Below, piece after piece: positions 2,963 through 59,344 of a stretch of 64,000 bases of DNA (within the stretch, counting starts at the first letter, position 1; each line of letters begins with the position of its first letter). Source of the stretch: Trichocoleus sp. (GTDB taxonomy: Bacteria; Cyanobacteriota; Cyanobacteriia; Elainellales; Elainellaceae); the NCBI GenBank assembly GCA_036702865.1, contig DATNQD010000074.1, positions 62,001-126,000 of the forward strand, read 5' to 3'. The notes under the pieces are model-generated. The model ran no database searches. It saw only the letters and a list, made by a program, of their open reading frames with translations, and was not told the DNA's origin. The translations under genes and the position numbers were made by a program.

Positions 2963-5794
2963 GTGGTTGACTGTCACCCTCAGCCGTTGGGTTCTCAAAG
3001 ATGCGTTGTTGCTCAGGCATCAAAACAAATGGTTCCCTTCTGGCGCTGTTCTTTGGTTGGAACACTCACAGGCATCCTTTTTACCCTTCCATTGAGTTCG
3101 ATCGCCCTTGCTGCTGCGCCTGCACCCCAATCCGCACCCGCCCCAAGCCAAGCGCAAGCCTCGCCAACGGTAGCCGTCGTTCAAAGCCCTGAAAATGCTC
3201 CCTACTGGCAAGCCATTCTCGATCGCCTGCAACAGGCTGGAACCCCCTATGAGGTAATTCGTTGGGAAACGGTTCAACGAACGGTGGAGCCTCGTCAAGC
3301 AACCGTTTTGTTTCTGCCGAATGTTGAAACTATTTCAGCCACTCAGGTGCTTGCCATTCAAGACTGGCTCAACCGGGGCGGCAGAATCATCGTGACAGGG
3401 GCAATCGGTCGCCAATCCTCTCCAGGAGTTCAGCAGGCACTGCGATCGTTGCTTGGCGCTTACTGGGAGGCTGCCTTACCTGACAGAAGTACTCTACAAC
3501 CCCTCGTTACAGCAACTCATCGCTGGCTTCGCTCAGGTGCGACCGAGCAACCGATCGCAGGTGGATCTTTAATTTCAACGAGTTTGATCAGTCAACCGGT
3601 GGCAACCTGGAATTCCTCGGCAGGCAGTTCTACTCGCGCAGGTCAAACAGGAAGCCGAACGGCGATCGTCGCGACGCAACAAACGACTTTCTTGGGCTGG
3701 AACTGGGGCAACCCTGATATTAGCTCGATCGACTTTGACGGCAGTTGGATCAAAGCAGCAGTCGATCGCTTTCAAAATCTTCCCCCCCTCCTCGCCGCAT
3801 CGACTCCCCCCAGACCTATCCCCTCACCTTCATCCCCCGTCGCTCGTTCACCTGAGAATCCCAGCAGCAGATATTCCCCATCCCCAAATTCCCAACCTTC
3901 ACCTGCGATCCCTCGCCCATCCTCCATTCCTGAGTCTCCAACCGCTGACCCGGCTGAACAAGTTGCCCCTCCCGGACTTCCTGTCGAACCCAATAATCAA
4001 CGGATCACGCTGATGGAAGCCACGGCGATGAAGCAAGAGCTGACCAACCTGATTGGACGGTTTGAAAGTGCCCTATTAGCAGCGGAGTCTGCCACCAGCT
4101 CGACTGATCTTCAGGTCACAACTCGTCGGACGACATCCACGCAGGAGAGCCTGACTGCGAGCGTCGATCGCACCCTCCCTCTGGCAAATCCAACTTCTCC
4201 CTCAGCCGCTATCTTGCAGCAAGCCAGACAAGGATTAACCGAATTTTCAGCAAGGCTCCAGCAACAAAATTATGCAGGCGCAAGGCAACAGTGGCTCGAA
4301 ACAAGACAACTGCTCTGGCAAAACTTCCCCACCGATCGCCCCTTCGCCCAGTCCGAGATTCGCGCCATGTGGATGGATCGAGAAACGATCGTGCGGGCAG
4401 GCTCGCGACAAGGATTAGCGCGGATTTTTGACCAGTTGAAAGCGGCTGGCATCAATACCGTCTTCTTTGAAACGGTGAACGCGGGCTATCCCATTTATCC
4501 CAGTCGGGTTGCACCAGAGCAGAACCCCTTAACACGCCAATGGGACCCTTTAGCGGCGGCTGTGGATTTGGCGCATGAGCGGGGCATGGAGCTTCATGCC
4601 TGGGTCTGGACATTTGCAGCAGGTAATCGCCCCCATAATGCAATTTTGGGTCTACCGTCTGACTATCCAGGTCCAATCATTGCTGCTCATCCTGATTGGG
4701 CAAACTATGACAATCGCGGCAATCTTATCCCGATCGGGCAGGGCAAGCCTTTTCTTGATCCGGCAAATCCAGCCGTTCGCCAATACCTCTTAAGCTTGTT
4801 TGAGGAGATTGTGACCCAATATCAGGTGGACGGGCTACAGCTCGACTACATCCGCTACCCGTTTCAAGACCCTGGAGCTGGACGGACTTATGGCTATGGC
4901 TTAGCAGCAAGGCAGCAGTTTCAGAATTTGACAGGGGTTGATCCACTGACGCTTTCACCCCAATCCCCCCAATGGCAGCAGTGGACAGAGTTCCGCGCGA
5001 ACCAGGTTAGTTCTTTTGTGGCTGAAGTCTCAAAATTGGTGCATCGTCGCCCAAATCTCATCCTTTCGACCTCGGTTTTTGCATTACCAGAGCATGAGCG
5101 AGTTCAGGACATCCAGCAATCTTGGGAAACCTGGGCAAGAAATGGCCATGTAGACATGATTGTTTTGATGAGCTATGCGCTAGATACCAATCGGCTGGAA
5201 CATCTGGCAATGCCCTGGATAGATGGCGAGATTAACTTAGGTTCAACGCTGGTTTTACCAGGAATTCGACTGCTCAATCTCCCAACCGAGATGGTGCTGG
5301 ATCAAATGCAGGCACTCCGCGATGCTTCAGCAGGAGGGTATGCCCTCTTCGCGACGGATAACCTGGCTGCCCCGCTGCAAACTATCCTCAACCGCACCCA
5401 GGGAGCAGACCGATCGCCCAGTTCCATCCCTTACCGCCAACCCTTTACGGCCGCTGCCGATCGCTTTACTGCCCTGCGTCGAGAATGGAGCTATTTGCTC
5501 AGCCAGGGACAACTCTGGATGCGCGAACCGGAACTGGCAGTCTGGCGAACTCAAGCAGATGCCGTTACCCAAGCCTTGAATCAGCTTGCTGCTCATCCCG
5601 ATCGTCAATCTCTAGCGCAAGCCAGAACTGCACTTCAAACATTTCGATCGCAGTTTGACGACTGGATGTATCTTCAGGCGCTCAATCAAAACTATCGCGT
5701 CCATACCTGGGAAAATCGGCTGGCAGTTTTGGAAAAGCTCTTAGACTACGGAGAGCAAACGGTTTTGCTCAGGCAGGCGGCAAGACCAGAATAA
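2963..5794 (+). CDS. Secreted GHL10/DUF187 glycoside-hydrolase-like protein
   Basis: A 943-residue protein with a GTG start at 2963, preceded by GAGGAG. A signal-like hydrophobic stretch lies near residues 30-50. Residues about 70-180 form an alpha/beta region resembling a class-I-amidotransferase-like fold. A Pro/Ser-rich linker follows (about 275-340). The core, from about residue 465 (EIRAMWMDRETI) to 760, is the GHL10 family (formerly DUF187), a TIM-barrel related to glycoside hydrolases; it includes FFETVNAGYPIYPS, ELHAWVWTFAAGN and DGLQLDYIRYP near residue 622. The C-terminal 130 residues are helical. It probably acts on an extracellular or periplasmic glycan, but the substrate is unknown. 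Its neighbours give no pathway hint. Confidence 0.85.
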   Translation: MVDCHPQPLGSQRCVVAQASKQMVPFWRCSLVGTLTGILFTLPLSSIALAAAPAPQSAPAPSQAQASPTVAVVQSPENAPYWQAILDRLQQAGTPYEVIRWETVQRTVEPRQATVLFLPNVETISATQVLAIQDWLNRGGRIIVTGAIGRQSSPGVQQALRSLLGAYWEAALPDRSTLQPLVTATHRWLRSGATEQPIAGGSLISTSLISQPVATWNSSAGSSTRAGQTGSRTAIVATQQTTFLGWNWGNPDISSIDFDGSWIKAAVDRFQNLPPLLAASTPPRPIPSPSSPVARSPENPSSRYSPSPNSQPSPAIPRPSSIPESPTADPAEQVAPPGLPVEPNNQRITLMEATAMKQELTNLIGRFESALLAAESATSSTDLQVTTRRTTSTQESLTASVDRTLPLANPTSPSAAILQQARQGLTEFSARLQQQNYAGARQQWLETRQLLWQNFPTDRPFAQSEIRAMWMDRETIVRAGSRQGLARIFDQLKAAGINTVFFETVNAGYPIYPSRVAPEQNPLTRQWDPLAAAVDLAHERGMELHAWVWTFAAGNRPHNAILGLPSDYPGPIIAAHPDWANYDNRGNLIPIGQGKPFLDPANPAVRQYLLSLFEEIVTQYQVDGLQLDYIRYPFQDPGAGRTYGYGLAARQQFQNLTGVDPLTLSPQSPQWQQWTEFRANQVSSFVAEVSKLVHRRPNLILSTSVFALPEHERVQDIQQSWETWARNGHVDMIVLMSYALDTNRLEHLAMPWIDGEINLGSTLVLPGIRLLNLPTEMVLDQMQALRDASAGGYALFATDNLAAPLQTILNRTQGADRSPSSIPYRQPFTAAADRFTALRREWSYLLSQGQLWMREPELAVWRTQADAVTQALNQLAAHPDRQSLAQARTALQTFRSQFDDWMYLQALNQNYRVHTWENRLAVLEKLLDYGEQTVLLRQAARPE

Positions 5795-7664: not shown

Positions 7665-8168
7665 TGAAATTGGGCGGTGAGATTCCGAACCTTCGATTTT
7701 AAACGGTTTTCGACAGCTTATTCAGTTCAAAGCTGAAGCTTGGCTGATAGGTAGCTCAATTGGATTGGACTCAATCTTCAAGCAATATCCAGATATCGAG
7801 AAGAGACTGACTATTTCACAACTTCTCATGAAGTTTCAACAATTGCACCAGATTTTCTCGGATTGCCTCTTCGAAGATATGAAATAATTCTTTGGAATCA
7901 GTCGATCGACACTAAAAAATAGTGAAGCAGCTTATTTGATTAGGCAGATCTACTAAACAGAGCGATGGGTTCCCCGATTCAATTAAAGGGTGAGCGTTAG
8001 CCATTGTTAGGATGGCATGAAGCTCAACTTAAATTTGTGGGAAATCTAACTTCTGAGATTGTTTGTCGAATCTTTAACCAAATTGGTGAAGGATAGACCT
8101 GAGCAGAACTGCTTAAGCCAGTCTTCCGCCGATTGTCAATGTCACGATGTAGGGTAGGAAATAGAAGC
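7665..8168. other. Intergenic region between proB and gmd
   Basis: About 500 bases of moderately AT-rich DNA between divergently transcribed genes. I see no gene, convincing hairpin or repeat; it presumably holds both promoters. Confidence 0.4.
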
Positions 8169-48103: not shown

Positions 48104-48592
48104 CTAGGCAGGAATGACGTGCAGAATCAGCGATCGCTTGTCCAATGACTGGACTTTGCCTGCTTGATTCAGGTCTTGCACAATACGATCTAGCAGATCA
48201 GCAGCCCGATCGCGGTACTGATGCTCTCGTCCCCGCAACCGAATCAAAAACTTCACTGAATCGCCCTTGCCCAACCACTGAATCGCTTTGTCGATTCTAA
48301 GTTGATAGTCAGCCGTACCCACATTCGGGCGGAGCCGTACTTCTTTAACCGTCGGTCTAGCACTTTGACTCTGACGTTTTTTCTGCTGATACTGAAGTTT
48401 TCCGTAGCTTAGGATCTTCGCAACTGGGGCATCTTTGCCTTCAGAAACGACAACCAGATCCAGCCCTTCATCTTCAGCTAGTCGCAATGCCTCAAAGGTG
48501 TCAACCAACCCACGATTATTATTTTCGTGGTCAATTAAAAAGACTTGAGGCGACTTAATTTGGCGGTTAATCAGTTGTTTCTTGTCTACGAT
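48104..48592 (-). CDS. infC: Translation initiation factor IF-3 with non-canonical AUC start
   Basis: IF-3 binds the 30S subunit and checks start-codon pairing. The product has 162 residues: the N-terminal domain (INRQIKSPQVFLID, ALRLAEDEGLDLVVVS), linker (YGKLQYQQKK) and C-terminal domain (KEVRLRP, IRLRGREHQYRD, LILHVIPA). The first ATG/GTG/TTG codon (TTG at 48508) would cut off 28 family-like residues. Upstream of it the frame stays open to a TGA without any standard start. AGAGGA lies 7 bases before an ATC codon at 48592, the best start. infC genes commonly use rare starts so that IF-3 represses its own translation. The sequence is divergent (Ser replaces Asp/Asn before YGK), so it may be a second IF-3 paralogue. 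Confidence 0.85.
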   Translation of the reverse strand: MVDKKQLINRQIKSPQVFLIDHENNNRGLVDTFEALRLAEDEGLDLVVVSEGKDAPVAKILSYGKLQYQQKKRQSQSARPTVKEVRLRPNVGTADYQLRIDKAIQWLGKGDSVKFLIRLRGREHQYRDRAADLLDRIVQDLNQAGKVQSLDKRSLILHVIPA

Positions 48593-48974
48593 GGTAATTT
48601 CCTCTACAGTTCAACATGCTACTTGTACACATGCTACTAACCTAACACAGCCTCACCCCAACGATCTTGACTTTTGTTAACGGTCAAAGGACGGCTACGA
48701 ACGGCGAGAAGCGTGAATCGTCCGTTGGTAAAACGGCAGTTGTCCGCTTACCATTGGCTCAATTCACTTTTACTGTTTCTTAACGTTTGCCTGCTTGTTG
48801 CTGCGGTCCTCTGTTCCGAAGCAGGCGATCGTCTAGCGACAAAATGTAGTTTCTGATACTTTTTGCTAAGATTCACTTTGGTATCAATGAAACGTGGCAG
48901 CGAGCAGCCGCTTTTTGGTTTCAGAGCAAGATTTTGTGTAGGAGTATTGCATCTGATTCATGGCACGAGCAATT
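48593..48974. other. Promoter region between infC and the guanidine operon
   Basis: About 380 bases between divergent units. A short plus-strand frame (48674-48856) has no domain or ribosome binding site and is not called. Promoters for infC and the riboswitch transcript should lie here. Confidence 0.4.
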
Positions 48975-49088
48975 AGTGGCTTCTAGGGTTCCGATTCAGC
49001 AACTTGCTGAGTGACTGGTCCGAGAGAAGCCGATCGCCCTTCACAATCGTGGCGATTACACGGCGGGAGAAAAGCCCGGGAGAGTATC
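48975..49088 (+). promoter_or_regulatory. Guanidine-I (ykkC type 1) riboswitch
   Basis: All conserved blocks appear in order: CTAGGGTTCCG (48983-48993), ACTGGTCCGAGAG (49014-49026) and ACGGCGGGAGAAAAGCCCGG plus GAGAG (49060-49084). This aptamer binds free guanidinium. It lies directly upstream of a guanidine hydrolase gene, fitting its known gene partners, and its 3' block overlaps an intrinsic terminator, so ligand binding should switch expression on. Confidence 0.95.
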
Positions 49089-49127
49089 GTACAGACTTCG
49101 CTCTGGTACGGCTTTCCTGGTTTTTTT
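49074..49127 (+). terminator. Riboswitch-controlled intrinsic terminator
   Basis: CCGGGAGAG (49076-49084) pairs with CTTTCCTGG (49112-49120) through nine pairs including two G-U. Inside it CGTAC (49088-49092) pairs with GTACG (49106-49110), and seven T residues (49121-49127) follow. The left arm is part of the conserved aptamer, so aptamer and terminator exclude each other. Confidence 0.88.
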
Positions 49128-49161
49128 GCGTTTGTATCTTTTCTATTCCTGGAGTGATTTC

Positions 49162-50355
49162 ATGACCGATCCGCTATTTCAGAGCCCTCAAAACAATCCG
49201 AATGGCGCTCGCTCGACTGAGGCAAATCAAGCGCTAGAACGGGAAACTCATCTGCCCCTGACGGGCTGGCAGCAGGAAGTTGAGCGTGGGTTGGAGTATG
49301 GGTTAGAAGCGGCTGAAAGCATCCGCGATCGATCGATTCCTACTTTTTCCCGAGGCGAACTGCCCCACTATGCCGGGATCAACACCTTCCTCAAAGCGCC
49401 CTACCTCGAAGATGTGCGAAAAGTGGGCGAGTATGATGTAGCGATCGTCGGTGTACCGCATGATTCTGGCACAACTTACCGTCCGGGAACCCGCTTTGGT
49501 CCACAGGGAATTCGCCGCATTTCTGCTCTGTATACACCCTATAACTTTGAACTTGGCGTTGATTTACGCGAACAGATTACGCTCTGCGACGTCGGTGATA
49601 TTTTTACGATTCCTGCCAACAACGAAAAGTCCTTTGATCAGATTTCTAAAGGCATTGCCCATGTTTTTAGCTCTGGTGCATTCCCAATCATTCTGGGCGG
49701 TGATCATTCGATCGGCTTCCCAACGGTGCGGGGCGTTTGTCGGCATCTGGGCGATAAGAAAGTGGGCATCATTCACTTCGATCGCCATGTAGACACGCAG
49801 GAAACCGACCTGGACGAGCGGATGCATACCTGTCCCTGGTTCCACGCGACAAACATGAAAAATGCTCCGGCTAAGAATCTGGTGCAGTTGGGCATTGGGG
49901 GTTGGCAAGTGCCGCGCCAGGGGGTAAAGGTCTGCCGAGAGCGGGCAACGAATATTCTCACTGTGACCGACATTACCGAAATGGGCATTAGTGCTGCGGC
50001 AGAATTTGCTTTAGAGCGTGCCCTGGATGGTACAGACTGCGTGTACATTAGCTTTGATATTGACTGCATTGATGCAGGATTTGTCCCTGGAACTGGATGG
50101 CCCGAACCCGGTGGACTGCTGCCCCGTGAAGCCTTAGCGTTACTGGCTAAGATCGTTCAGCGTGCTCCGGTTTGCGGTTTAGAAGTGGTGGAAGTTTCGC
50201 CACCCTATGACATCAGCGATATTACTTCGCTCATGGCAACGCGCGTCATTTGCGACACAATGGCACATTTAGTGCTTTCTGGGCAGCTACCCCGTAAAGA
50301 AAAACCCACCTACATTTTCCCGGAATCGCAGCCCGAACTGGTTGACTGGACATAG
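49162..50355 (+). CDS. gdmH: Ni-dependent guanidine hydrolase (arginase-fold, Sll1077/GdmH type)
   Basis: Predicted to hydrolyse guanidine to urea and ammonia. The 397-residue protein has the ureohydrolase fold with an N-terminal extension (about 1-80). Metal motifs: GGDHSIGFP, HFDRHVDTQ (Arg where agmatinases have Ala in DAH) and SFDIDCIDAGFVPGTGWPEPGG. Agmatinase-like annotation is common, but the guanidine-I riboswitch upstream and the HypA-like and HypB-like nickel-delivery genes downstream match the described Synechocystis Sll1077-1079 system. The ATG at 49162 follows TGGAGTG; the frame's upstream TTG at 49126 lies inside the terminator and is rejected. Expression should rise with guanidine. 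Confidence 0.93.
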   Translation: MTDPLFQSPQNNPNGARSTEANQALERETHLPLTGWQQEVERGLEYGLEAAESIRDRSIPTFSRGELPHYAGINTFLKAPYLEDVRKVGEYDVAIVGVPHDSGTTYRPGTRFGPQGIRRISALYTPYNFELGVDLREQITLCDVGDIFTIPANNEKSFDQISKGIAHVFSSGAFPIILGGDHSIGFPTVRGVCRHLGDKKVGIIHFDRHVDTQETDLDERMHTCPWFHATNMKNAPAKNLVQLGIGGWQVPRQGVKVCRERATNILTVTDITEMGISAAAEFALERALDGTDCVYISFDIDCIDAGFVPGTGWPEPGGLLPREALALLAKIVQRAPVCGLEVVEVSPPYDISDITSLMATRVICDTMAHLVLSGQLPRKEKPTYIFPESQPELVDWT

Positions 50356-50409
50356 CCCACCCCAAATAACCCGATCGCCCTTTTATTCACTCGCAGACTC
50401 GATCGCCCT

Positions 50410-50775
50410 ATGCATGAAACAGACATGACCAAGGCGCTGATCATCACTCTCCAAAACTGGTGGGATGAGCAGCCGGAAAAACCCCAGATTACGCAGGTTC
50501 ATCTCACCGTCGGACAGTTTACCTGTGTGGAACCTGTCAGCCTCCAGTTTGCCTTTGAGGTGCAGACGCGAGGGACGTTTCTGGATGGCGCAGCACTGGT
50601 GATCCGCGAAACGCCGCTGATCGCTTTCTGCCATCCTTGCCAGCAGGAATATCAGCCCGAAATTGGCGTTCAGTATGCCTGCCCAACCTGCCATTCACCC
50701 ATGGACGATATTCGATCGGGACGAGAACTAAAGATCGATCGCCTAGAATGCAGCACGATGGCGATCGGGTTTTAG
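50410..50775 (+). CDS. HypA-like nickel metallochaperone for the guanidine hydrolase
   Basis: A 121-residue HypA/HybF-family protein. It begins MHET, with the His2 that binds nickel in HypA, and carries the zinc-site pair CHPC and CPTC (about residues 76-96). HypA normally delivers Ni to NiFe hydrogenase or urease. No hydrogenase genes are nearby; its place 54 bases after gdmH and before a HypB-like gene, as in Synechocystis sll1078, points to nickel loading of the guanidine hydrolase (GhaA-type role). It is part of the riboswitch-controlled operon. Confidence 0.9.
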   Translation: MHETDMTKALIITLQNWWDEQPEKPQITQVHLTVGQFTCVEPVSLQFAFEVQTRGTFLDGAALVIRETPLIAFCHPCQQEYQPEIGVQYACPTCHSPMDDIRSGRELKIDRLECSTMAIGF

Positions 50776-50873
50776 CCAATGCTTGAAAAAGCCGAGTCGC
50801 TTCTCAACCAGCCTCATCAGCCAGTTTCTTGAGATACAGCACAGATCCACAAACCAACCATTCGTGAATTCCT

Positions 50874-51572
50874 ATGCACCAAACCTTTGACGCCGCTCTG
50901 GGGATTAATCTACTGCACGCGAATCAGGAAGGAGCTGACCACAATCGCGCCCATTTCGACAGTTGGGGTATCACTTGCCTCAATGTGATGAGCAGTCCGG
51001 GGGCAGGTAAAACGGCTCTGCTTGAGCGCACATTGGCAGCCCTGAATACTGAACTTAAAGTTGCTGTGATTGAAGGCGATATGACGACTGAACTGGATGC
51101 CGATCGCCTGCGGCAGTATGGGGTTCCTGTGATTGCCATCAACACCGGACGTTCCTGTCACCTCGACTCCAAGATGGTGTCTGGCGGCATTCATCGATTA
51201 GCCCATGAGTACAATCCGGCAGAATTTGATTTGGTGCTGGTTGAGAACGTTGGCAATCTCGTTTGTCCAGCAGAATTTGAGGTGGGTGAACATGCCAAAG
51301 TCGCGCTGCTCAGCATTACTGAAGGAGAAGATAAGCCGCTCAAGTATCCGGTCATGTTTCAGGAAGCAGATTGTCTGCTGATTACGAAATTGGATCTTGC
51401 TCCTTATCTAGAAGTGGATATCGAACGCATTGCCGCAAATGTCCGACAGATGAATCCTCACGTCACGATTATTGCCGTATCGGCTAAAACGGGTGAAGGC
51501 TTGGAGCTTTGGTATGACTGGGTGCGGCAGCAGGTGGCTCAGAAACCTGTCTTAATCGCTCATTCGCATTAA
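50874..51572 (+). CDS. HypB-like nickel-insertion GTPase for the guanidine hydrolase
   Basis: A 232-residue SIMIBI-class GTPase. Walker A is [30 protein letters not shown], the metal-site [28 protein letters not shown] and the guanine-specificity TKLDLA all match HypB. A short HSH tail ends the protein; no long N-terminal His-rich store is present. GTP hydrolysis would drive nickel transfer together with the HypA-like protein. It corresponds in position and type to Synechocystis sll1079 (GhaB role). It is last in the three-gene guanidine operon. Confidence 0.92.
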
Positions 51573-51801: not shown

Positions 51802-52572
51802 TTATTGCGGCGATTGTGTTTCGTCCATTGCAGGTGGGCGGTGTTGCTGAAGCTGCTGCCGCTGTTCTGCAGTCAGGATAGTGTCCATCTGCTGACGAGT
51901 GGCTTCCCGGATTTGCTGAATTTGTGTCTGCTGCTCATCAGTTAGATTGAGCGACTCAAACATCTGACCTCTCTCTCCCCGGTTTGCTCTAGCGGCTTCT
52001 AGCTGGGTTTTCTGGGCATCCGTTAAGACATTGCTAATTTGCTCTCGCTCCGATTGTTTAATCTGTTCCATCTGTGCTTGCTGCTCGGAGGTTAGGTTCA
52101 GGTTTGGATGCCGCATTCCTTCTCGTCGAGGATTCTGCTGAAGCTGTTGCCGCTGTTCTGCAGTCAGGATAGCGTCCATCTGCTGACGAGTGGCTTCCCG
52201 GATCTGCTGAATTTGTGTCTGCTGCTCATCAGTTAGATTGAGCGACTCAAACATCTGACCTCTCTCTCCCCGGTTTGCTCTGGCGGCTTCTAGCTGCGTT
52301 TTCTGGGCATCCGTCAAGACATTGCCAATTTGCTCTCGCTCCGATCGTTTAATCTGTTCCATCTGTGCTTGCTGCTCCGAGGTCAGATTGAGCCAGTTTT
52401 GCCGATGGAACGATCGTCCTGCTGATGGGGTTGCCGAAGTGGATGAGGACTGTGCCAGTGCAGCGGGAATCATTCTGCTGGAAAGGGTCAGCACAGCAAC
52501 TCCAGCCAGCAATGAGAGCCATTTAACCGTTGCCTTTTGATTCTTTAGCATTGTTGCAAAATTTAAGTTCAT
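51802..52572 (-). CDS. Spy/CpxP-like exported LTXXQ-repeat protein
   Basis: A 256-residue protein with a signal peptide (about residues 1-40, ending PAALAQ). The mature part has four helical LT-x-x-Q type units (LTSEQQAQMEQI, LTDAQKTQLEAARANRGERG, LTDEQQTQIQQIREATRQQM, LTAEQRQQLQQ), which come as a near-exact duplication with a 97-residue period. Spy and CpxP are periplasmic ATP-independent chaperones of envelope stress with similar motifs; the role here is inferred. TTAGGA precedes the ATG at 52572. Most residues are Gln, Glu, Arg and Ala, giving a charged helical bundle. Confidence 0.82.
   Translation of the reverse strand: MNLNFATMLKNQKATVKWLSLLAGVAVLTLSSRMIPAALAQSSSTSATPSAGRSFHRQNWLNLTSEQQAQMEQIKRSEREQIGNVLTDAQKTQLEAARANRGERGQMFESLNLTDEQQTQIQQIREATRQQMDAILTAEQRQQLQQNPRREGMRHPNLNLTSEQQAQMEQIKQSEREQISNVLTDAQKTQLEAARANRGERGQMFESLNLTDEQQTQIQQIREATRQQMDTILTAEQRQQLQQHRPPAMDETQSPQ
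51849..52391 (-). repeat. Intragenic tandem duplication, 291-bp period
   Basis: Two DNA copies of roughly 240-250 bases (from 51849 and from 52140) are nearly identical and offset by exactly 291 bases (97 codons) within the Spy-like gene. A less conserved stretch of about 40 bases separates them. Confidence 0.88.
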
Positions 52573-57880: not shown

Positions 57881-59344
57881 ATGAGCGCCTTACAATCCCA
57901 CATTCAAAAAGTTTCTGATACGGTTTGGGAAATTCCGACTTCCTATAAAGATGGAATGCGGGTTCCGGCTCGAATCTACGCAACGGAAAGTTTGATCCGC
58001 GAAATGGATGAAGGCGTATTAGATCAGATTACCAATGTAGCAACGCTACCGGGGATTACGAAATATGCTATGTGTATGCCCGATGGTCATTTTGGCTATG
58101 GCTTCCCGATCGGCGGTGTAGCGGCAATGGATGTCGATCGCGGCGGCATTATTTCCCCAGGCGGCATTGGCTTTGATATCAACTGCGGGATGCGTTTAGT
58201 CACAACCAACCTGACCTATGACGAGGTGAAGCCGCACCTGAAGGAACTGGTTGATCTGCTCTACAAGCGGATTCCAGCCGGAGTTGGCAGTACTGGCTTT
58301 CTAAAAATCTCGCGGAATGAGTTTCGGCAGGTGGTGGAAGAAGGCGCAGGATGGTGTGTGCAAAATGGCTATGGCTGGGAGGAAGACCTGGAGCTGACGG
58401 AGGAGAATGGCTCCTTTCAGGGGGCAGATGCTTCTAAAATTAGCGATCGGGCAATCGATCGGGGCTTTAACCAGATTGGCACTTTAGGGTCGGGCAATCA
58501 TTATCTAGAGATTCAGGTTGCCAAGCCAGAAAATATTTTTGACCCAGAGCTGGCAAAAGCTTTCGGCATCACAATTCCTAATCAAGTAGTGGTCATGTTT
58601 CACTGCGGCAGTCGGGGCTTTGGGCATCAGGTCGCCACAGACTATTTGCAAACTTTCCTGAAAGTCATGGAAAGCAAATATAACATCAAGATTCTCGATC
58701 GCGAGTTGGCTTGCGCTCCGTTTAACTCACGGGAAGGACAGGCATACTTTTCGGCAATGAAGTGCGGTATCAATATGTCGTTTGCCAACCGCCAAGTCAT
58801 CTTGCACCGGATTCGGGAAGCCTTTTCGCAGGTGTTTAAGCGATCGGCTGAAGATCTGGAGATGCGAATGGTCTATGACGTATCTCATAACACTGCCAAG
58901 CTAGAGCGGCATCTTGTCGATGGACAGGAGCGCAATTTGCTGGTGCATCGCAAAGGCTCGACTCGCGCATTTGGACCTGGAATGCCTGATTTGCCCGAGC
59001 GCTACGAGAAAACCGGACAGCCCGTTATTATTGGCGGCAGCATGGAAACTGGGTCTTATTTGCTGGCAGGCGTACCCACAGGTGCAGAAACCTTCTTTAG
59101 CACTGCCCACGGTAGCGGACGGACGATGAGCCGCACTAAAGCCCGTAAGACCTGGCGTGGAGAAGCTTTACAAAAGCAAATGGCGGAGCGAGGAATTTAT
59201 GTCCGCAGTACCTCCTGGTCGGGTTTAGCAGAGGAGGCAGGCGGGGCATATAAAAATATTGATGAAGTGATTGAAGCGACGGAGTTGGCTGGCTTATGCC
59301 ACCGAATTGTGCGCCTTGCGCCGATCGGTAATATTAAAGGATAG
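57881..59344 (+). CDS. rtcB: RtcB RNA ligase
   Basis: A 487-residue GTP- and Mn-dependent ligase that joins RNA 2',3'-cyclic phosphate or 3'-phosphate ends to 5'-OH ends. Metal and guanylation motifs are present: FDINCGMR, GSGNHYLEIQ, FHCGSRGFGHQ, DVSHNTAK and the guanylated-His motif STAHGSGRTMSR. It begins a plus-strand cluster with a 2H phosphoesterase, a COG0523 GTPase and archease; archease is the known turnover partner of RtcB. This strongly suggests an RNA repair or tRNA-processing role. No RtcR regulator is seen. Confidence 0.96.
   Translation: MSALQSHIQKVSDTVWEIPTSYKDGMRVPARIYATESLIREMDEGVLDQITNVATLPGITKYAMCMPDGHFGYGFPIGGVAAMDVDRGGIISPGGIGFDINCGMRLVTTNLTYDEVKPHLKELVDLLYKRIPAGVGSTGFLKISRNEFRQVVEEGAGWCVQNGYGWEEDLELTEENGSFQGADASKISDRAIDRGFNQIGTLGSGNHYLEIQVAKPENIFDPELAKAFGITIPNQVVVMFHCGSRGFGHQVATDYLQTFLKVMESKYNIKILDRELACAPFNSREGQAYFSAMKCGINMSFANRQVILHRIREAFSQVFKRSAEDLEMRMVYDVSHNTAKLERHLVDGQERNLLVHRKGSTRAFGPGMPDLPERYEKTGQPVIIGGSMETGSYLLAGVPTGAETFFSTAHGSGRTMSRTKARKTWRGEALQKQMAERGIYVRSTSWSGLAEEAGGAYKNIDEVIEATELAGLCHRIVRLAPIGNIKG

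What the first reader, a model, noticed from the sequence alone, without database searches (positions are those of the whole stretch)
48975..51572. Complete riboswitch-controlled guanidine assimilation operon
A guanidine-I riboswitch, an arginase-fold hydrolase and stand-alone HypA-like and HypB-like proteins lie in order on one strand with no hydrogenase genes nearby. Seen: conserved riboswitch blocks and enzyme motifs. Known: Synechocystis Sll1077-Sll1079 is a Ni-dependent guanidine hydrolase with HypA/B-type helpers. Inference: this organism uses free guanidine as a nitrogen source.
Basis: partly seen in the sequence, partly recalled or inferred. Interest (0 to 1): 0.8.

Follow-up and report, generated by a model that had tools for sequence, protein, structure and literature searches.

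The report
Riboswitch-controlled nickel guanidine hydrolase operon
A cyanobacterium carries a short operon that appears to sense guanidine with an RNA switch and to encode a nickel enzyme that splits guanidine into urea and ammonium, plus its two nickel-loading helpers: a known kind of system, found here without the importer that often goes with it and with signs that nitrogen shortage also controls it.

Summary
A guanidine-I aptamer (91 bits, E 4.5e-15), gdmH, hypA and hypB lie in order on the + strand. GdmH is 88% identical (328/372 aligned) to Synechocystis GdmH and has all four reported guanidine-specificity residues. It is a new member of a known system, found in 87 of 195 cyanobacterial genomes. 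"Complete" is too strong: the ABC importer found with most relatives is absent from the operon, and no close homologue of its binding protein was found in the genome. Urease is present; NiFe hydrogenase was not found; this HypA is the only one found. Of 130 hydrogenase-less genomes, HypA occurs in 51 of 51 with GdmH and 0 of 79 without. Best reading: transcription needs nitrogen limitation and guanidine together, which favours assimilation over pure detoxification. Growth on guanidine is not shown. Side lead: a sodium:solute symporter near gdmH, once with its own riboswitch, may be an alternative importer.

The parts
48846..48859 (+). NtcA-type site GTAGTTTCTGATAC (GTAN8TAC)
   Evidence: exact match; such a site lies within 600 nt upstream of gdmH in 54 of 78 sequences including this window, Markov shuffles give about 3 in each half of the set
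48882..48887 (+). -10-like TATCAA, in context TGGTATCAAT, exactly 22 nt after the NtcA-type site
   Evidence: TGNTA at spacing 22 in 36 of 60 sites, at most 4 at any other spacing from 12 to 39
48972..49084 (+). guanidine-I riboswitch aptamer (RF00442)
   Evidence: 91 bits, E 4.5e-15
49076..49127 (+). intrinsic-terminator-like hairpin (49076-49120, with bulges) plus T7 (49121-49127); its 5' arm is the aptamer's 3' strand CCGGGAG, so terminator and aptamer closure should exclude each other
   Evidence: the simple terminator scan does not list it, probably because the stem has bulges
49151..49154 (+). GGAG, likely ribosome binding site of gdmH
   Evidence: sequence
49162..50355 (+). gdmH, nickel-dependent guanidine hydrolase (arginase fold), 397 aa
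50410..50775 (+). hypA-type nickel metallochaperone (GhaA/Sll1078-like), MHE N-terminus and two CxxC motifs
   Evidence: only PF01155 match found in the genome
50874..51572 (+). hypB-type nickel GTPase (GhaB/Sll1079-like)
   Evidence: the only other match in the genome is UreG (28% identity)

Best explanation
This is a gdmH-hypA-hypB operon. Under nitrogen limitation NtcA activates the promoter at about 48846-48887 (inferred from a conserved site). RNA polymerase then transcribes a guanidine-I aptamer. Without guanidine, the 3' strand of the aptamer pairs downstream into a terminator (49076-49127) and transcription stops. With guanidine the aptamer closes, the terminator cannot form, and gdmH, hypA and hypB are made (inferred from the fold and from validated relatives). 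HypA and HypB load nickel into GdmH, which hydrolyses guanidine to urea and ammonium; the genome's urease completes nitrogen release (inferred from homology). No dedicated importer is encoded in the operon, so guanidine must arise inside the cell or enter by another route.
For: Aptamer. 328 of 372 aligned residues identical to Synechocystis GdmH and T105, H222, W313 and E344 all present. HypA/HypB over curated cut-offs. Urease alpha and UreG present. No NiFe hydrogenase found and a single HypA found. Across 195 genomes, HypA follows GdmH when hydrogenase is absent: 51/51 against 0/79. NtcA-type site and -10 element with fixed 22-nt spacing recur across loci. Terminator-like hairpin overlapping the aptamer in 26 of 36 sequences including this one, by a loose criterion without a shuffled control. 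In Synechocystis the homologous operon is repressed by excess ammonium (PMC10094980, passages).
Against: No importer gene in the operon; the best binding-protein match in the genome is 24% identical and the best symporter match 26%. The NCBIfam agmatinase model TIGR01230 scores 175.5 bits, just over its cut-off of 174.3. The minimum-energy fold of leader plus terminator is the terminated state and says nothing about ligand switching. In Synechocystis the ammonium repression of this operon depended on the protease Slr1821, and the passages I saw do not name sll1077 as an NtcA target. Single GTAN8TAC sites are common: 7 in the window against 3.65 expected. No expression, binding or growth data were seen for this organism. 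NtcA itself was not searched for in this genome.
Confidence: 0.88

Rival explanations
1. The hydrolase is an agmatinase of the polyamine pathway, as automatic annotation would say.
For: TIGR01230 agmatinase is passed by 1.2 bits; arginase fold.
Against: 780 and 596 bits to the two guanidinases in the PDB against 135 bits to the highest-ranked agmatinase; guanidine-specificity Thr and Trp present; guanidine riboswitch. The genome has a second arginase-family gene whose upstream neighbour reads as AdoMet decarboxylase plus spermidine synthase (my reading of the translation, not a family search), a better polyamine candidate; that gene itself stays below the agmatinase cut-off (165.5 against 174.3).
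Confidence: 0.03
2. The operon is there to detoxify guanidine made inside the cell rather than to feed on external guanidine.
For: No linked importer and no close importer homologue found in the genome. In Synechocystis, Sll1077 degrades guanidine, and a species lacking the enzyme cannot mitigate guanidine toxicity (PMC8390497, passages).
Against: NtcA-type promoter architecture recurring across the loci ties expression to nitrogen limitation; urease present. The two roles are not exclusive.
Confidence: 0.3
3. HypA/HypB here are left over from a lost hydrogenase or serve urease, not GdmH.
For: HypA/B serve hydrogenase, and in some bacteria urease (recalled). No hydrogenase found in this genome.
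Against: In 79 genomes with neither hydrogenase nor GdmH, no HypA over the cut-off was found in any; in 51 with GdmH only it is present in all 51. Leftovers or a urease role would not give that pattern (how many of the 79 have urease was not counted). hypA and hypB lie beside gdmH in most of 80 loci.
Confidence: 0.04

Closest known systems
Synechocystis PCC 6803 sll1077-sll1082 (gdmH, ghaA, ghaB, ABC importer) with guanidine-I riboswitch
   Same: Same aptamer class, same gene order for the first three genes, 88% identical hydrolase, same specificity residues
   Different: The importer genes sll1080-1082 have no counterpart behind hypB here
Nitrospira inopinata guanidinase with APC permease under guanidine-I riboswitch
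   Same: GdmH-type enzyme (596 bits) under the same riboswitch class
   Different: There: permease first and no nickel chaperones nearby (PMC11410670, passages); here: chaperones and no permease
Metformin hydrolase operons (hypA, hypB, two ureohydrolases, hupE)
   Same: Arginase-fold nickel enzyme activated by HypA/B encoded beside it (PMC11399263, passages)
   Different: Heteromeric, different substrate, more distant (138-148 bits)

Membership tests
Guanidine-I riboswitch (RF00442) | Passes the covariance model at the curated score | tested here: met
   91 against 63 bits, full length
Guanidine-I riboswitch (RF00442) | Ligand-dependent relief of an expression platform | not testable with these tools
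   An overlapping terminator is predicted; switching is inferred
Nickel guanidine hydrolase GdmH | Closer to characterised guanidinases than to other ureohydrolases | tested here: met
   780 and 596 bits against 178 for the next protein; by bit score, no tree built
Nickel guanidine hydrolase GdmH | Thr97/Trp305 (Synechocystis) = Thr105/Trp313 (N. inopinata), plus His222 and Glu344 | tested here: met
Nickel guanidine hydrolase GdmH | Nickel dependence and guanidine turnover | not testable with these tools
   Needs an assay; linked HypA/B is indirect support
Guanidine assimilation operon as in Synechocystis | ABC importer genes in the operon | tested here: not met
   The next gene is on the opposite strand; binding-protein homologue not found at E 1e-60, best match 24% identity
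Guanidine assimilation operon as in Synechocystis | Urease in the genome | tested here: met
   Urease alpha subunit and UreG; the other urease genes were not searched for
NtcA-activated (class II) promoter | GTAN8TAC, 22 nt, -10 element (consensus recalled) | tested here: met
   the -10 is TATCAA, not a strict TAN3T; NtcA binding not tested
Agmatinase | TIGR01230 equivalog score | tested here: inconclusive
   175.5 against 174.3, outweighed

The most novel reading that the evidence does not exclude
Across cyanobacteria the gdmH operon is a two-input gate, NtcA for nitrogen shortage and a guanidine-I riboswitch for the substrate, with interchangeable uptake modules: the known ABC importer, a sodium:solute symporter that I did not find reported and that in one genome has its own guanidine riboswitch, or none as here. 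HypA/B are kept only for GdmH where hydrogenase is missing, which makes such genomes natural tests of chaperone specificity.
Probability: 0.5. Interest if true: 0.5.

Novelty: new member of a known kind. Interest (0 to 1): 0.3.

Why it matters
The system is known, but this copy sits in a genome in which no NiFe hydrogenase and only one HypA were found, so HypA/B function here can be read as GdmH maturation. The comparison also gives a testable control logic (nitrogen status and guanidine together) and a candidate new guanidine importer family. It is a further case where automatic annotation would call a guanidinase an agmatinase.

Tried and rejected
Agmatinase reading: rejected on scores, residues and the presence of a second arginase-family gene. 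An importer elsewhere in the genome: the six binding-protein matches are 21-26% identical. Two were looked at: one passes the SsuA-family model (L087) and one sits by an amidohydrolase (L086). The guanidine-type binding protein of L003 itself passes the same SsuA-family model, so a guanidine role for one of these is unlikely at that identity but not excluded. Symporter match in the own genome: 26% identity. The simple promoter and terminator scans found fewer sites than shuffles did (2 against 3.7 and 2 against 4.0). The binding protein used as importer marker also occurs in 27 GdmH-negative genomes (94 less 67; the script printed 26 because one place, G081, was not typed in), so it is not specific by itself; linkage is the better sign. 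Linkage counts are lowered by contig breaks: in G043 and G148, HypA and the binding protein sit together on another contig than gdmH. Two of the 20 genomes counted without it have other ABC genes beside gdmH: G006, with its own second riboswitch, and G168. No gene tree was built. Other guanidine riboswitch classes were scanned in the window only, not in the whole genome.

Full report
What is there. The window lies in a 5.93 Mb genome in 90 contigs (100% complete by the tool's estimate). The 80 best relatives of the hydrolase (575 were confirmed, 80 kept) come from records whose titles name cyanobacteria, except one titled Candidatus Gracilibacteria (L021, 89% identity, probably mis-binned). 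The guanidine-I aptamer at 48972-49084 scores 91 bits, E 4.5e-15, and is the only RF00442 match reported in the genome. Behind it lie gdmH (ATG 49162-50355), hypA (50410-50775) and hypB (50874-51572) on the same strand. The next gene, Spy-like, is on the other strand.

Enzyme. The protein matches Synechocystis GdmH (7ESR/7OI1) with 780 bits and Nitrospira inopinata guanidinase (9FEK) with 596 bits. The next is proclavaminate amidinohydrolase with 178, and the highest-ranked agmatinase has 135. Counting the printed alignment gives 328 of 372 identical. The four residues that PMC11410670 lists as possibly important for guanidine catalysis (passages), Thr105, His222, Trp313 and Glu344, are all present at the same numbers. 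Against this, the NCBIfam agmatinase model is passed by 1.2 bits, which explains the usual label. The genome has one other arginase-family gene, beside a gene whose translation reads as AdoMet decarboxylase plus spermidine synthase (my reading), so a polyamine role is likely covered there.

Helpers. HypA and HypB pass their curated models. In the genome I found no NiFe hydrogenase large subunit, one HypA, this one, and besides this HypB only UreG at 28% identity. Urease alpha is present. I then compared 195 cyanobacterial genomes (joined). GdmH (E up to 1e-100) is in 87 of 195; a few of these are partial or hold stop codons (G004, G007, G009, G027, G131). HypA over its Pfam cut-off is present in 36 of 36 genomes with GdmH and hydrogenase, 51 of 51 with GdmH only, 28 of 29 with hydrogenase only (exception G120), and 0 of 79 with neither. 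Three weak HypA hits (G012, G015, G069) and five weak hydrogenase hits (G004, G027, G067, G164, G192) with E between 1e-4 and 1e-3 were counted as absent; the remaining 115 and 65 equal the tool's own counts over the cut-offs. Fisher's test in the hydrogenase-less genomes gives p 2e-37, not corrected for kinship; within the window's own family the pattern is 11 of 11 against 0 of 5 (read). So in this sample HypA goes with hydrogenase or GdmH. I did not count urease in these genomes. I have not seen this profile in the passages read; Funck 2022, the key paper, is not held.

Importer. In Synechocystis the operon goes on with three ABC importer genes (PMC8390497 and PMC12186494, passages). Among the 80 loci, some cut short by contig ends, tblastn finds hypA in 76 and hypB in 73 (in L017 both lie upstream). 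Clusters of the binding protein and of the permease are each found in 51 of 80, both in 50 (by tblastn 53 and 52). Of 87 GdmH genomes, 50 have the binding protein within 8 kb, 17 only elsewhere (at least two of these, G043 and G148, through contig breaks) and 20 not at all at E 1e-60, including this one. The own genome's best match is 24% identical. "Complete" therefore does not hold. Two of the 20 have other ABC genes beside gdmH: G006, where they have their own riboswitch, and G168. In this genome no second guanidine-I riboswitch was found, and the genes behind hypB that I named, up to 55620, are not transporters.

Control. The leader folds with a hairpin at 49076-49120 followed by T7, whose 5' arm is the aptamer's last strand (z-score -3.3, 0 of 200 shuffles as stable). 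By a loose criterion (at least 4 of the first nine bases paired near a T run, no shuffled control) the same overlap was found in 26 of 36 sequences, counting this one. Upstream, a GTAN8TAC site at 48846-48859 is followed after 22 nt by TATCAA in the context TGGTATCAAT. In itself one such site is weak: the window holds 7 where 3.65 are expected. But in the 300 nt ahead of the aptamer, 26 of 36 sequences have it, against 1.5 in Markov shuffles, 0-4 for five rearranged motifs and 0-5 for five other gap lengths. Among 78 sequences with at least 550 nt upstream (77 of 80 loci and the window), 54 have the site within 600 nt of gdmH (27 of 37 with the aptamer pattern, 27 of 41 without it; the pattern misses some true aptamers), against 2.8 and 3.0 in shuffles. 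A strict TAN3T stands at spacing 22 in 14 of 60 sites, with 6 at spacing 28 and 5 at 16. TA alone stands at spacing 22 in 43 of 60 and at 28 in 22, and TGNTA at spacing 22 in 36 of 60 and at most 4 at any other spacing tested. This is the class II NtcA promoter layout (recalled). Relatedness inflates the counts, but hardly explains the sharp spacing. In Synechocystis, sll1077-1082 is repressed by ammonium, an effect that needed the protease Slr1821 (PMC10094980, passages). A search for NtcA with guanidine riboswitch found one paper, whose passages do not tie the two together. Two likely sources (Itzenhauser 2025, Giner-Lamia 2017) are not held, so I do not claim this is new.

Side finding. A sodium:solute symporter (PF00474 for the L060 copy) of about 500 aa lies within 4 kb of gdmH in 6 of 80 loci, plus a 52-residue fragment in L010. 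None of the six has the ABC binding protein or permease in the DNA fetched; L010 has both. It is downstream of hypB in L052, L060 and L079 (split into two frames in L079) and upstream on the other strand in L032, L056 and L066. In L056 it has its own guanidine-I riboswitch (81 bits). L032, L066 and L079 show no guanidine riboswitch even at E 0.1. Of 36 further stretches fetched, 6 hold it, again without binding protein or permease, and two of these are the same places as L060 and L052. In the 16 loci scanned with Rfam, 12 have the aptamer ahead of gdmH; L032, L066, L079 and L096 do not. A search for guanidine with sodium solute symporter found one unrelated paper, and the 10 papers listed of 353 in a broader search included none that by title and abstract start reports this.

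Verdict.

Noticed in passing
L056:3170-4666 (-) with riboswitch 4816-4932 (-); also L032, L052, L060, L066, L079: Sodium:solute symporter near gdmH where the ABC binding protein is missing, once with its own guanidine-I riboswitch: candidate guanidine importer.
   Followed up: partly
L095:8387-8513 (+) and 7919-8145 (-): Two guanidine-I riboswitches on opposite strands, one for gdmH and one ahead of a more distant ABC set.
   Followed up: partly
195 cyanobacterial genomes: HypA is matched by hydrogenase or GdmH, with one exception: a genome with hydrogenase in which no HypA was found (G120).
   Followed up: partly
L085:1453-2529 (-): Second arginase-family gene in the window's genome, next to a gene that reads as AdoMet decarboxylase plus spermidine synthase; likely a polyamine-pathway ureohydrolase.
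   Followed up: partly
L111:5566-5658 (-), L121:10562-10637 (-): Glutamine riboswitch aptamers (RF01739) near gdmH in two genomes, another nitrogen signal in the neighbourhood.
   Followed up: no
window 48104-48508 (-): IF-3-like reading frame of 134 aa with a TTG start, matching positions 29-156 of the 170-position model; shorter than a full IF-3.
   Followed up: no
window 57881-59344 (+): RtcB-family ORF whose best model is the intein-containing RtcB exception, matched only at its C-terminal part.
   Followed up: no
window 51802-52572 (-): Spy/CpxP-like protein with an internal near-duplicate repeat.
   Followed up: no
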